Shown one piece after another: positions 18,951 through 62,521 of a DNA stretch of 62,568 bases. This DNA is from a virus. A program made the translations under genes and the position numbers. Location of the stretch: IMG/VR virus record IMGVR_UViG_3300044953_000267, positions 1 to 62,568 of that record. One strand, written 5' to 3'. The notes beneath the pieces are model-generated. The model ran no database searches and was not told where the DNA came from. It worked only from the letters and a program-made list of their open reading frames with translations. How positions within the stretch are numbered: position 1 is the stretch's first letter; every line of letters begins with the position of its first letter.

Positions 18951-20135
18951 TTAAAGTAACCAAGTTAAATTTTCTTTTTTATTACTTCCCAAATTCATTT
19001 GCCATGCTTCATGTGCTTCTAAATTATTTGGTTTGTACACTGCTTCTGAAGCTCCGGTTCTATTAATTCCACTTAATAAAGATTTATTTAAGTCGATTCC
19101 TTGTTGACGCAACTTTAATGCAGTATCTCTGACCCACAATCCTATTCCAAATGACATAACTAAATCGTCATGATGATTTGGCATAGCTTCAGGTTTATTA
19201 CCATTCCATATAAATGTGCTTAATTCGTTCATTAAACGAACTGAACGAACTTCAATACTACGTTCTCTAAAATACATTTCCATTCTAGATACCAATAATG
19301 GTCTTGTTTTCATCGTAGTTGTAAACCCCGGAACCATTTTCTTTTCTTCTCTATAGTATTTGTTACTCAATTGTCTTTCAACGTCTACATATTGAAGATC
19401 TGCGCTGCTATAAAATGTATTTGGATACTGTCTGTCAATAATTTGTTGTAATACTGCCCATCCAATGTTTGCATTTTCTACAACCAACAATGCATTGTTA
19501 TATTCGGTTGCCGCTCCTACCAAAAAGTTACCATAATCTTTAGTTCCTATTTGTCCTTGATATTCAGCAACTTGAGTAAAGCTTTCAACGTCAATTACGT
19601 GAAATGCACTATAATCTGAACTATCACCACGAGCTACGTCAGCACTAATTATATAGTTACGAGTATAGTCTGGATATTCCCAAATCCAATATCCTTTATC
19701 TATTCCTCTCATTTCAATTGGATCTTTTACTTTTTCTGCTTTATAAAATTCTATTGTTGGAATTTCAATAACAGTATTACCGGTTGTTGTAAAATCACAA
19801 TTATGTGATACAATACCATCTACATAGAATAAGTTTCCTCCAGCAACATTAACTATATCATATAATTCTATCTGGGAATTTATAATCTTCTTTGCTTTTA
19901 CAAATGTTAAAATTGAGTTTTCACTATCTATTTCATCTCCAATATTTAATAATTCCGCAGCTATTTCTTTTTCTTTTTGTATGAATTTATGTTCTTTTGA
20001 ACATTTAATAATTTTATTGTTTGATAACAATATTTCAACATAAGAATCTTTAATGACTTTTCTTAAACCAGAGAACGATTGATATCCACTTGGAGTTAAA
20101 ATTTTGTATTTATTGTTATTTTTTAAAGAAATCAT
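18951..20135 (-). CDS. 17: C-terminal half of a split-intein large terminase: C-intein plus TerL nuclease domain
   Basis: 394 residues. Residues 1-112 are a C-intein that carries intein block B (IIKCSKEHKF), block F (LYDIVNVAGGNLFYVDG) and the splice end IVSHN, followed by Cys+1 at 113. The extein from CDFTTTGNTVIEI onward is the second part of gp17, with its RNase H-like nuclease: ISADVARGDSSDYSAFHVID (first Asp), LLVVENANIGW (Glu) and PNHHDDLVMSFGIGLW (third acidic site). N-terminal MISLKNNNKYKILTPSGYQS resembles the start of the AceL-TerL C-intein, where block B also lies in the C-half. The start overlaps the endonuclease stop (ATGA), so translation is coupled. The expected spliced TerL is 246 + 282 = 528 residues. 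Confidence 0.92.
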   Translation of the reverse strand: MISLKNNNKYKILTPSGYQSFSGLRKVIKDSYVEILLSNNKIIKCSKEHKFIQKEKEIAAELLNIGDEIDSENSILTFVKAKKIINSQIELYDIVNVAGGNLFYVDGIVSHNCDFTTTGNTVIEIPTIEFYKAEKVKDPIEMRGIDKGYWIWEYPDYTRNYIISADVARGDSSDYSAFHVIDVESFTQVAEYQGQIGTKDYGNFLVGAATEYNNALLVVENANIGWAVLQQIIDRQYPNTFYSSADLQYVDVERQLSNKYYREEKKMVPGFTTTMKTRPLLVSRMEMYFRERSIEVRSVRLMNELSTFIWNGNKPEAMPNHHDDLVMSFGIGLWVRDTALKLRQQGIDLNKSLLSGINRTGASEAVYKPNNLEAHEAWQMNLGSNKKENLTWLL

Positions 20136-20872
20136 ATTTTTATTCTTATGAATTTACATTTTAGATGGTTTTTAATTTCAATTTGTCGTATTTTATCTTT
20201 TTTTAAATACTTTGGATTGTTATGACGATTTTCATCTATTTCTAATACAACATTTTTTATTGGATCGTAGGCATCTAAAAAATATCCTAACTCTTTTATA
20301 TAAAATTCTCCTCCGTTTTCAGCATGTATAAAATTATATCCGTATTTTTTTCCATAATTTTCAATTATGGATATTGCATTTTTATTATATCTAGGAACTA
20401 TTTGATTACCAATTTTTGATTCTAAATGTTTTAATGTAGATATTCTCTGTTTTCTTTTTGTTTCTATTGAATGTGTTTTTCCCTCCCATGTATTATGATA
20501 TGAAGGACATTTTCTACAAAAAGAAGTCCATACATACTTTTTTCCACATTCACATTTTAATTTATTAATATCACTATTATATTCAATTAAAAATTTTACT
20601 CGATATTTAAAATTATAAGAACCTTTCCACGTTTTTTGTTTTTTTAATATCAATTCTAAAATTTTTGTATGATCATAAATAGATAAATATAGTATTGGAT
20701 TTTTCTTTATTAATATTCTATTTTTTCCTTTTCCGTATAAATGCTTATATAAGTCGTTTTTTTTCAATTCACTAATTGTTTCTGATAATGTATATCTATC
20801 AGTAATCGAATTAAGATTAGTTTTTATCTTCTCCCATCCTCGTTTAACATTAACACTCACTTTTGCATTCAT
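20132..20872 (-). CDS. Vsr-like homing endonuclease between the two terminase/intein halves
   Basis: 246 residues, free-standing. The middle has a zinc-binding pattern (CECGKKYVW..FCRKCPSYH, about 120-141). The C-terminal domain (about 165-246) reads GGEFYI, YFLDAYDPIKNVVLEIDENR, a His directly after, then KKDKIRQIEIKNHLKCKFIR. This spacing of E, D, ExD/E, H and D fits the Vsr-like EDxHD endonucleases described with fractured genes and split inteins. It starts 23 bases inside the N-terminase gene in another frame and ends with an ATGA overlap onto the C-half, so all three cistrons are coupled. It is expected to cut intein-less terminase genes and spread the insert. Confidence 0.85.
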   Translation of the reverse strand: MNAKVSVNVKRGWEKIKTNLNSITDRYTLSETISELKKNDLYKHLYGKGKNRILIKKNPILYLSIYDHTKILELILKKQKTWKGSYNFKYRVKFLIEYNSDINKLKCECGKKYVWTSFCRKCPSYHNTWEGKTHSIETKRKQRISTLKHLESKIGNQIVPRYNKNAISIIENYGKKYGYNFIHAENGGEFYIKELGYFLDAYDPIKNVVLEIDENRHNNPKYLKKDKIRQIEIKNHLKCKFIRIKI

Positions 20873-21704
20873 GTATATACATATTATAGAATTCTTCCAA
20901 TGTTATAAATTTTTTCTCATTCGTTTCTGTGTTTAGAACTGAAATTTTTGACTGTCCCCATAAACAATCACATTCTTGTGCGGATCCTTTTACTCCACTT
21001 AATGCGGTTTGTTCATCTCTCCACTTTTGATTTCTTTCTGGATGTAAGTGCCAAGGCAATTTAATTGTATTAAATTTATTTCTTTTTGCTTCAGCATCAA
21101 CCCATGTTTTATAAAAGAAATTACCAACTCCATTTGGAGTACTCAATATAATTGCACGACCACCTGTACTTAGTGTGTATTGTGCAGAAAGCCATATTTC
21201 TTCAATATTATCAATAAAAGCAGCTTCGTCTATTATTAACAATGAAAGTGCAGCAGAACGACCAGCAGTACCCGCACTACTTTCTGCTTTAATAGTTGCC
21301 CCATTCTTTAATATTAAGGAAAGACGATTATTTTCAGCAAATGGAACTTTTAACCAAGATGGTAAATTATCATTTGCAAAACGAACACGAGTCACTATTT
21401 CTTTACTGGTTTCTTGTGTAATACTAATACAACGAATATTTTTATCTGTATGAAACACCATCATCCATAAACTATATGCCGCTACTAATGTACTAATACC
21501 CATTTGACGAGCTTTTAATATAATATTAAAATCATGTTCAACAATACCAGTTAATGCTTCTTCTTGAAATGGATATAAATCAAAATTAATTGTACCACGA
21601 ATAGGATGTTGAATCTTGACATATTTCTTCATGAAATATATCGGATCTTTTAAACATTTTTTATACTCTTCCTTAATTATTTCTTTTAATGTTTTTTCAG
21701 ACAT
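20850..21704 (-). CDS. 17: N-terminal half of a split-intein large terminase: TerL ATPase domain plus N-intein
   Basis: 284 residues. Residues 1-246 are the gp17 ATPase with Walker A-like KARQMGISTLVAAYSLW and Walker B LSLLIIDEAAFID, followed by LSTPNGVGNFFYKTW (coupling motif) and ending SGVKGSAQECD. Residue 247 begins a 38-residue N-intein with Cys1 (CLWGQSKISVLNTETNEK, intein block A) running to the stop. This is far shorter than the usual ~90-100 residue N-inteins, since block B is in the other half. The junction ECD/CDF places the insertion in the ATPase-nuclease linker region where T4-like TerL has a CxF motif. Its start overlaps the upstream gene by 8 bases. Confidence 0.93.
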   Translation of the reverse strand: MSEKTLKEIIKEEYKKCLKDPIYFMKKYVKIQHPIRGTINFDLYPFQEEALTGIVEHDFNIILKARQMGISTLVAAYSLWMMVFHTDKNIRCISITQETSKEIVTRVRFANDNLPSWLKVPFAENNRLSLILKNGATIKAESSAGTAGRSAALSLLIIDEAAFIDNIEEIWLSAQYTLSTGGRAIILSTPNGVGNFFYKTWVDAEAKRNKFNTIKLPWHLHPERNQKWRDEQTALSGVKGSAQECDCLWGQSKISVLNTETNEKKFITLEEFYNMYIHECKSEC

Positions 21705-60317: not shown

Positions 60318-60800
60318 CTAATTTTTAAAATATTTAATAACTTTGCGCCCACCTTCAAATTCTTTTACAACTTCTTGTTTATCAAATAAATGCTCAAAAG
60401 GTGGCATATATGTATCTCCTTCATATTTTCCATTTACATGAGTGACATGAAATTCTGTAATATATGGAAGAAATAACGCATAAGTCTTTGCACCACCAAT
60501 ACATATCAGATTTGGTTGAGATTCTTTAATTACTAAGATATTTTGAAATGATTTATAGCATAACGCACTATTAAAAATTGGATCATAAGAATCTTCATAC
60601 CCGTTAGATGTTGATGTTACAACTATTATATTTCTATTTCTAAGAGGAGGTAGAGTATCAAACGTTCTATGTCCACAAAATAATATTTTATTAGTAGTAA
60701 ACTATTTAAAATACTTAAAATCATCTTTTATAGTTGGCCACGTAAGTCCTCCATTTTTACCCACGGCTCTGTTTTCAGACATCGCCATTATTGCTTTCAT
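60318..60800 (-). pseudogene. frd: Dihydrofolate reductase gene interrupted by an in-frame TAG
   Basis: From the ATG at 60800 the frame reads MKAIMAMSENRAVGKNGGLT, WPTIKDDFKYFK, then TAG at 60702-60704 (codon 33). It continues with CGHRTFDTLP, NIIVVTSTS, LICIGGAKTYALFLPYITEF and HVTHVNGKYEGDTYMP to codon 161. The whole is a normal-length DHFR (T4 frd is similar), with the NADPH site IGGA and the folate-site start. It is broken by one amber codon where family members have a coding codon such as Glu. DHFR supports dNTP synthesis. No ATG follows the stop closely, so the second part alone is unlikely to be made. Confidence 0.85.
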
Positions 60801-60946: not shown

Positions 60947-61441
60947 TCAACTTAAATTAGTATAATAATCTTGATATTGACTGTGATTTCCTATAAAAAT
61001 CCACTTTAAATATATTTGATTTGTAGCATCATATCTATATGCGATTGCTCTATAATTTCCATTAATATCAACTGACCAATATTTTCTATTAATTTGTTTT
61101 AAAGGTTTGAAATGTAAACTTGGATCAAATGGATTTTTTAAAAATAATTGAAATTTTAATTTAGATACTTTCTTAACAGGTTCTGGTAATTTATCATACA
61201 TTTCCCAAAATTCTTTTGTAGGTCTGCTATCTACTAATATTTTTATGTTAGATGAAATCTCTGTTACATACTCCATTTCCTTTTCAAGTGAACGAGAAGT
61301 GTCAACTGGTGTATTGAAAATTTCCCAATCTGCTGTTTCTTCCCAATCTGTTGGATTTAAAAACTCAAATAATAATTTTTTGTGGCGTTCAAATGTATCA
61401 GAAAATATATTCATATCATATAAATATACAAAAAAACTCAT
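60947..61441 (-). CDS. RelE/ParE-superfamily-like protein with N-terminal extension
   Basis: 164 residues (or 155 from the second ATG at 61414). The C-terminal half (about 90-160) has FLKNPFDPSLHFKPLKQINR, then YWSVDINGNYRAIAYRY and LKWIFIGNHSQY. This is a RelE/HigB-type toxin pattern: a helix, then strands with a WSVxxNxxYRA motif and a WIGxHxxY end. The N-terminal half is an acidic helical region. No antitoxin gene is adjacent, so a classical toxin-antitoxin pair is not seen. It may act on mRNA or ribosome, but catalysis is not shown. Confidence 0.65.
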   Translation of the reverse strand: MSFFVYLYDMNIFSDTFERHKKLLFEFLNPTDWEETADWEIFNTPVDTSRSLEKEMEYVTEISSNIKILVDSRPTKEFWEMYDKLPEPVKKVSKLKFQLFLKNPFDPSLHFKPLKQINRKYWSVDINGNYRAIAYRYDATNQIYLKWIFIGNHSQYQDYYTNLS

Positions 61442-61469: not shown

Positions 61470-61559
61470 TGGCGGTAGAGGAGGGATTCGAACCCCCAGA
61501 GGCTTTGATACCTCTGCGGTTTTCAAGACCGCCACCTTAGTCCACTCAGCCACCCTACC
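61470..61559 (-). tRNA. tRNA-Ser (anticodon UGA)
   Basis: On the minus strand the molecule folds with acceptor GGTAGGG/CTCTACC (one G·U), D-arm, anticodon stem GCGGT/ACCGC with loop CTTGAAA (anticodon TGA), a long class II variable arm (AGAGG...CCTCT), T-arm with GTTCGAATC, discriminator G and an encoded CCA. It reads UCA codons, which are frequent in this AT-rich genome. Confidence 0.95.
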
Positions 61560-61566
61560 ATGAAAT

Positions 61567-61767
61567 TTATTCTTCTTCTTCCTTTGAAGATTTAGTGATC
61601 TTCAAACTCAAATCACCATTTGCTTCTTCAACTACAGCTTTGATCTCATTTTCAAGCTCTTTAATCTTTTCCTTATAGCCAGCCGCTACATCCTTGAAGT
61701 CTTTTTTTGTAAAAATTAACTTTTCTGTTAATTCATAAACCTTTTTTTCTGCTTCTGTTTTTGTCAT
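61567..61767 (-). CDS. Small coiled-coil protein
   Basis: 66 residues, charged helix throughout (KKVYELTEKLIFTKKDFKDV, ELENEIKAVVEE), with an acidic end EEEE. A late-promoter-like AATAAATA lies 25 bases upstream on the minus strand. The function is unknown. It lies between tRNA-Ser and tmRNA. Confidence 0.65.
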   Translation of the reverse strand: MTKTEAEKKVYELTEKLIFTKKDFKDVAAGYKEKIKELENEIKAVVEEANGDLSLKITKSSKEEEE

Positions 61768-61809: not shown

Positions 61810-62192
61810 TGGTGGACGTGGCGAGAGTCGAACTCGCGTGTTTAATATATTAACTATACCAGACTACATGTTTATTCATTTTGAATTTGTTTGTGACAAT
61901 TCTAATAAATGAAAAACAAAATTGTCCTTTAGATTGCTCAATGTTCAATCATATAACACAATCCGATTATATAATTTACTCTGATAAATGTCATTTACTG
62001 TAATATCAGATATTTTACAATAAACGGGCTACCTTTTAATTAGGCAGCAACGGCGACTTCATCATAAGAGAAGTCATATGCAATTACATTGTCGTCTGCA
62101 TTTAGTTTTTTAATGGATTTTTTAGGAAGCCAACCATTATCTTCCACATGCCTAGCATAACTAGTTTATTAAATCGAAACCAGTACACGCCC
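61810..62192 (-). ncRNA. ssrA: Phage-encoded tmRNA (ssrA)
   Basis: The minus strand gives acceptor GGGCGTG (5') paired with CACGTCC (3'), an encoded CCA, a 3' T-arm GCGAGTTCGACTCTCGC and a 5' TGGTTTCGA segment, about 383 bases. An internal frame, 62040-62099, starts with GCA after TAAAT and encodes ADDNVIAYDFSYDEVAVAA then TAA, so it is a proteolysis tag ending in VAA rather than LAA. tmRNA rescues ribosomes stalled on broken mRNAs, and the tag would mark the products for degradation. It is in one piece, not circularly permuted. Confidence 0.93.
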
Positions 62193-62446: not shown

Positions 62447-62521
62447 TGGCAGGGGATGCTGGAGTCGAACCAACTTCTTCTCGTTCAAAGCGAGACATAA
62501 TAGCCATTATACTAATCCCCC
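62447..62521 (-). tRNA. tRNA-Gln (anticodon UUG)
   Basis: On the minus strand the acceptor GGGGGAT/ATCCCCT (first pair G·U) frames a D-arm, anticodon stem TCTCG/CGAGA with loop CTTTGAA (anticodon TTG), a T-arm with TTGGTTCGACTCCAG, discriminator G and CCA encoded. It reads CAA, frequent in this genome. Confidence 0.92.

What the first reader, a model, noticed from the sequence alone, without database searches (positions are those of the whole stretch)
61810..62192. Phage-borne tmRNA with a long acidic tag ending VAA
A complete tmRNA with an internal tag frame sits among phage tRNAs. The tag is about 20 residues with several Asp and Tyr, and differs from the common short ANDENYALAA or GENNYALAA types. 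It could reflect the host lineage or divert rescued peptides to another protease.
Basis: partly seen in the sequence, partly recalled or inferred. Interest (0 to 1): 0.7.

Follow-up and report, generated by a model that had tools for sequence, protein, structure and literature searches.

The report
Phage tmRNA with lineage-specific long tag
This phage, probably of Bacteroidota, carries a complete tmRNA (the RNA that frees stalled ribosomes and tags the unfinished protein), and its long tag has a conserved core found in scores of related phages but, in the pattern searched, in no tmRNA of about 85,000 bacterial and archaeal species.

Summary
In detail: window 61810-62192, minus strand, is an intact one-piece tmRNA (RF00023, 114 bits; ARAGORN) with a 19-residue tag, ADDNVIAYDFSYDEVAVAA, beside tRNA-Ser and tRNA-Gln on a T4-like phage contig. 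It belongs to a large phage tmRNA family. Covariation in 33 relatives is strong, with G3-U70 in all 33 and the acceptor and T stems 100% paired. In loci fetched without reference to the tag, 92 of 92 readable homologous tmRNAs keep the core V[IV][SA]Y[DNE][FL] in tags of 18-30 residues; 27 of 31 distinct tags end in AA. Net charge runs from -5 to +8, so acidity is not the conserved property. The tag frame shows a protein-coding signature. The core pattern hit 57 viral contigs; the one hit in 84,980 cellular species is not a tmRNA. 'Reflects the host' is therefore not supported. 'Another protease' is neither shown nor excluded. No SmpB was found in 28 related contigs, so host SmpB is presumably used. 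Most likely it is a working phage tmRNA that adds the phage's own degron during infection. Phage tmRNAs are already known; the lineage-specific conserved core and a 6-bp T-stem variant in relatives appear new.

The parts
61810..62192 (-). One-piece tmRNA (ssrA) gene, 383 nt including encoded CCA
   Evidence: ARAGORN; Rfam RF00023 114.4 bits; covariation
62040..62099 (-). Tag reading frame ADDNVIAYDFSYDEVAVAA plus stop UAA; resume codon GCA (Ala)
   Evidence: protein-coding signature in relatives
62186..62192 (-). Acceptor stem 5' strand GGGCGUG, with G3 of the G3-U70 pair
   Evidence: paired in 100% of cells; G-U at pair 3 in 33/33 relatives
61810..61820 (-). Acceptor stem 3' strand CACGUCC, discriminator A and encoded CCA
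61821..61837 (-). T arm, 5-bp stem GCGAG/CUCGC with canonical T-loop UUCGACU
   Evidence: all five pairs change on both sides in relatives, 100% paired
62112..62145 (-). Pseudoknot PK1 (GGAAG/CUUCC; AAUGG/CCAUU)
   Evidence: both helices 100% paired
62028..62048 (-). Hairpin P5 holding the end of the tag frame and its stop codon
   Evidence: 92% paired
61980..62026 (-). Pseudoknot PK2
   Evidence: 87-89% paired
61931..61976 (-). Pseudoknot PK3 (fully complementary in the window)
   Evidence: only 46-57% paired across relatives on this alignment, so not settled for the family
61885..61926 (-). Pseudoknot PK4
   Evidence: stem 1 92%, stem 2 69% paired
61567..61767 (-). ORF66: 66-aa highly conserved helical protein downstream of the tmRNA; may or may not belong to it
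   Evidence: same strand and downstream in 91/91 loci, median 100 nt; co-occurs with tmRNA in 22/22 and absent in 16/16 without, but this is about one or two evolutionary events
61470..61559 (-). tRNA-Ser (UGA)
62447..62521 (-). tRNA-Gln (UUG)

Best explanation
A functional phage tmRNA. Inferred mechanism: expressed from a tRNA/tmRNA locus during infection, matured like a tRNA, charged with alanine by host AlaRS (G3-U70) and carried by host SmpB and EF-Tu to ribosomes stalled on broken messages, for example as host mRNA is degraded. It resumes translation at GCA and appends ADDNVIAYDFSYDEVAVAA. The AA end still marks the peptide for a host Clp-type protease; the conserved internal V[IV][SA]Y[DN]F is kept by selection, most simply as a contact for the protease or an adaptor. 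Shown by sequence: intact fold with compensatory changes, conserved G3-U70, maintained reading frame and core, presence across a phage lineage, no SmpB found in the related records searched. Inferred: expression, charging, ribosome rescue and the fate of tagged proteins.
For: Full-length Rfam match. In 33 relatives the acceptor, T stem, part of P2 and PK1 are 100% paired; 442 double-change cells against 154 in shuffles; covariation score 0.42 against 0.08-0.16 in slid controls. Tag: pN/pS 0.43; V, Y and the Ala at the fourth-last aligned position invariant in 33/33; pairwise differences by codon position 1573:837:2642. The core is present in 92/92 tag-independent tmRNAs, and 27/31 distinct tags end AA. 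In many relatives the tmRNA sits a few nt behind a tRNA-Gly, suggesting co-processing. No SmpB in 28 related viral records, while the control search rings. Literature: phage tmRNAs are recognised (PMC9004378, PMC4131195), and lambda-immP22 depends on trans-translation in E. coli (PMC2862035).
Against: No expression or activity data. The window is a fragment, so a phage SmpB elsewhere in this phage is not excluded. PK3 pairs poorly across relatives on this alignment. A few relatives end VVA, AVAT or ALAV, so a strict AA end is not universal. Some third positions in the core are also frozen (GTA, GAC), so part of the conservation may be at RNA level.
Confidence: 0.65

Rival explanations
1. Diverted fate: the phage tag works against the host system. 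Its long internal core keeps tagged peptides from the host's usual adaptor or protease, or sends them to another, so that rescue is uncoupled from normal degradation.
For: The core is conserved across phages while flanks and charge change widely; more distant phages of the group and two Cellulophaga phages also have very long, odd tags, the latter ending VGV. Ribosome rescue, not tag degradation, is what cells need most (review PMC8012679), so a phage could change the tag freely.
Against: 27 of 31 distinct family tags keep the AA end expected of Clp-type degrons. No phage protease or adaptor found: ClpP only in 1 of 30 records, a 303-kb contig.
Confidence: 0.2
2. Host relic: the gene was taken from an unsampled host lineage whose own tmRNA carries this long tag, and the phage merely copies it.
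For: Phage tRNAs and tmRNAs are often host-derived (PMC9004378 reports SAR11-like ssrA in phage Melnitz).
Against: No tmRNA of 84,980 cellular species bears the core in the pattern searched, while 57 viral contigs do; many sequence types across the phage lineage point to long residence in phages.
Confidence: 0.12
3. Decoy or attachment-site relic: an RNA that only ties up host SmpB, or a leftover of integration into host ssrA.
For: TLD-only forms are known in phage DS6A (PMC4131195), and one relative, LR756508, has a 112-nt TLD-only RNA besides a full tmRNA.
Against: The full message part, reading frame and pseudoknots are under selection here, and the phage is T4-like with no integrase seen among the ORFs examined.
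Confidence: 0.03

Closest known systems
Bacterial one-piece tmRNA, Rfam RF00023 (ssrA)
   Same: Acceptor with G3-U70 and CCA, T arm, PK1-PK4 layout, Ala resume codon, tag ending in AA
Phage-encoded tmRNAs (mycobacteriophage Bxz1 group, Bacillus phage G; Methylophilales phage Melnitz and pelagimyophages)
   Same: tmRNA in the genome of a phage
   Different: Phage G tag is AKLNITNNELQVA; Melnitz has a two-piece, riboswitch-controlled tmRNA (PMC9004378); the tags of the mycobacteriophages were not compared here
tmRNAs of Cellulophaga phages Calle_1 and phi38:1
   Same: Flavobacterial phages with a long tag
   Different: Pervagoviridae (Calle is podovirus-like), with an unrelated tag, probably GNNTNAVNAQIEANMEAVNAILNLEVAVGV

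Membership tests
tmRNA (RF00023) | Covariance-model match above the gathering score | tested here: met
   114.4 bits against 47, positions 1-374
tmRNA (RF00023) | tRNA-like domain with alanine identity pair G3-U70, T arm, CCA | tested here: met
   G-U in 33/33, acceptor and T stem 100% paired with compensatory changes
tmRNA (RF00023) | Internal tag frame with resume codon and stop | tested here: met
   19 codons from GCA to UAA, frame under selection
tmRNA (RF00023) | PK1, PK2, PK4 | tested here: met
   87-100% of cells paired, except PK4 stem 2 at 69%
tmRNA (RF00023) | PK3 | tested here: inconclusive
   Complementary in the window, 46-57% across relatives
tmRNA (RF00023) | Charging, SmpB binding, trans-translation | not testable with these tools
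   Needs experiment
Two-piece (permuted) tmRNA | Circularly permuted gene order | tested here: not met
   The acceptor halves are the two ends of one continuous gene
Host-type tag | Same tag core in a cellular tmRNA | tested here: not met
   0 tmRNAs among 84,980 species for the pattern used; looser patterns not scanned

The most novel reading that the evidence does not exclude
These phages encode their own trans-translation degron: the conserved core V[IV][SA]Y[DN]F redirects proteins tagged during infection to a different adaptor, protease or fate, possibly with ORF66 as a phage partner.
Probability: 0.15. Interest if true: 0.8.

Novelty: new variant of a known kind. Interest (0 to 1): 0.45.

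Why it matters
Why phages carry tmRNA is an open question. A phage lineage that keeps its own tag core under selection while flanks and charge drift makes it testable whether phages merely restock ribosome rescue or rewrite what happens to the tagged proteins. The relatives also supply tmRNAs with a 13-bp acceptor-T stack, a natural test of the rules of the tRNA-like domain.

Tried and rejected
DNA similarity to 50,697 isolate phages found no tmRNA relative. Tag tblastn against phages gave nothing, but a 20-aa query is weak. Reading about half the family as lacking a tmRNA because ARAGORN missed them was rejected: they carry a variant T arm and the covariance model finds them. Tag conservation was not measured on the 57 contigs found by the tag pattern, because that pattern fixes the core; tag-independent loci were used. 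The idea that L205 marks a circular genome was dropped (its tmRNA is internal). A RelE-like gene next to the tRNA-Ser as a tmRNA partner was rejected as not conserved. ORF66 as a tmRNA partner: perfect co-occurrence, but one or two events on the tree; the model is one long helix and no known family or structure matches. A T4 late-promoter-like TATAAATA lies upstream of the tmRNA, but the motif occurs 15-16 times per strand in this AT-rich window. Host tmRNA tags of Bacteroidota could not be surveyed: no cellular Bacteroidota genome handle was reachable.

Full report
What is there. Window 61810-62192 on the minus strand is a complete one-piece tmRNA. ARAGORN gives the same ends and the tag ADDNVIAYDFSYDEVAVAA. 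Rfam RF00023 matches over its whole length with 114.4 bits. The window is an IMG/VR virus record of 62.6 kb, classed linear and probably a fragment. Its major capsid and portal proteins are nearest to Flavobacterium phage immuto and 'Microcystis' phage Mel-JY01, about 52-54% identical, and more distantly to Rhodothermus phage RM378. Only 5 of 39 gene starts show a Shine-Dalgarno-like motif. A Bacteroidota host is therefore likely but not proven.

A family, not a single oddity. Two searches not based on the tag (PhoH and the small protein ORF66) gave 131 loci. Of these 93 hold a homologous tmRNA, and 92 tags can be read. All 92 contain V[IV](D)[SA]Y[DNE][FL] (one with an extra D), in 31 distinct tags of 18-30 residues, 27 of them ending AA. 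Some of these loci lie on the same contigs, so the 31 distinct tags are the better count. Another unbiased look, RF00023 on 33 records chosen by capsid protein, found 5 tmRNAs with the same core, including the diverged L132 (AKNVIAYDFTPEMDEVAVAA).

Selection on RNA and tag. On 33 relatives the structure drawn from the window is 84.7% paired, with 74 of 100 pairs showing changes on both sides. It exceeds all 500 shuffles and all slid versions by far. The acceptor keeps G3-U70 in 33/33. PK3 is the weak point on this alignment. The tag shows pN/pS 0.43, with invariant V, Y and a near-terminal Ala, and an excess of third-position differences. Some core codons are frozen at the third position too, so an RNA-level constraint may contribute.

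Host or phage. The core pattern AAYGTNRTNDSNTAYGAYTTYWSNTAYGA hit 57 viral contigs; in each the hit reads as a complete tag, with a full tmRNA around it where the contig allows. In genome contigs (84,980 species) it hit once, in a Pirellulaceae genome, inside a frame reading NVVAYDFTYETLTRMSD. That genome's tmRNA lies on another contig and ARAGORN reads its tag as ANNNLALVA. The tag is thus a phage-lineage trait as far as sampled. The limits are that the scan used one strict pattern, and that host tags of Bacteroidota could not be surveyed. The short host tags quoted (GENNYALAA and the like) are background knowledge.

Partners. No SmpB was found in 28 related viral records, with the control ringing in 10 of 14 genomes. 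ClpP occurs in one of 30 records, twice, in a 303-kb contig. The phages therefore most likely rely on host SmpB and host proteases. In many relatives the tmRNA follows a tRNA-Gly by a few bases, which suggests processing from a shared transcript.

Known background. About 2% of isolate phages carried tmRNAs in a 2021 survey (402 of 18,146; PMC9004378), and earlier lists name Bacillus phage G and mycobacteriophages (PMC4131195). Huge phages also carry tmRNA and SmpB (PMC7162821). Tags of bacteria range from 8 to 35 residues (PMC2862035), so length alone is not new. New here, as far as searched, are the conserved phage-lineage core and the T-arm variant in relatives.

Mechanism. The best reading is a working phage tmRNA that supplements ribosome rescue during infection and adds the phage's own, probably still proteolytic, tag. 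The alternative that the core changes the fate of the tagged peptides is open and testable. The relic and decoy views fit less well.

Noticed in passing
L152, L155, L160, L161, L293 and others (24 viral contigs): tmRNAs with a variant tRNA-like domain: acceptor GGGGAUG/CAUCUCC, 6-bp T stem GCGGGG/CCCCGC, T-loop UGCGACU (GGCGGCU and a compensated outer A-U pair in L293), and a changed D-loop. ARAGORN misses them; Rfam finds those tested.
   Followed up: partly
L165:849-1235, L168:1410-1796: Mosaic tmRNAs with a canonical 5' end and a variant 3' end, giving a broken acceptor stem (5 of 7 pairs): recombinants or assembly chimeras.
   Followed up: no
window 61567-61767 (-): ORF66, a very conserved helical 66-aa protein that co-occurs with this tmRNA type, with no significant match in Pfam, PHROGs or 50,697 isolate phages; two loci, L314 and L320, have it without a tmRNA.
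   Followed up: partly
window 60329-60800 (-): Dihydrofolate reductase gene with an in-frame TAG; homologues lie in L212, L279, L280 and L334. TAG ends only 1 of 40 genes in the window, so pseudogene or recoding is open.
   Followed up: partly
window 18951-21704 (-): Terminase large subunit split in two, with intein-like halves and a NUMOD3-like endonuclease ORF (weak match) between them; resembles the 'fractured gene' split inteins (comparison from memory).
   Followed up: partly
window 60947-61441 (-): RelE/HigB-like toxin domain (weak Pfam match) next to the tRNA-Ser; homologues only in L197 and L198 among the loci searched.
   Followed up: partly
LR756508.1 92434-92880 and 414804-414915 (L346, L348): A 484-kb phage with a tmRNA whose tag is probably ADYESAGFTAEDFAQMDGESLYHGSERKPAAV (ARAGORN picks another frame), plus a 112-nt TLD-only RNA.
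   Followed up: partly
L353 (184.8-kb contig), L354 (294-kb contig): Other long-tag phage tmRNAs: AKRNLAKVSFLSVRKNADVEMLAAA, and one ending TFEDAMAFVGAGEVLMAA.
   Followed up: partly
PP540027.1 27560-27651 (L388): The tmRNA reported for Maribacter phage Panino scores only 26 bits with RF00023, below the cut-off.
   Followed up: partly
L157, L159, L193 3' ends: tmRNA genes without encoded CCA, followed by a shared sequence AGTGCA...TGCACTTGA.
   Followed up: no
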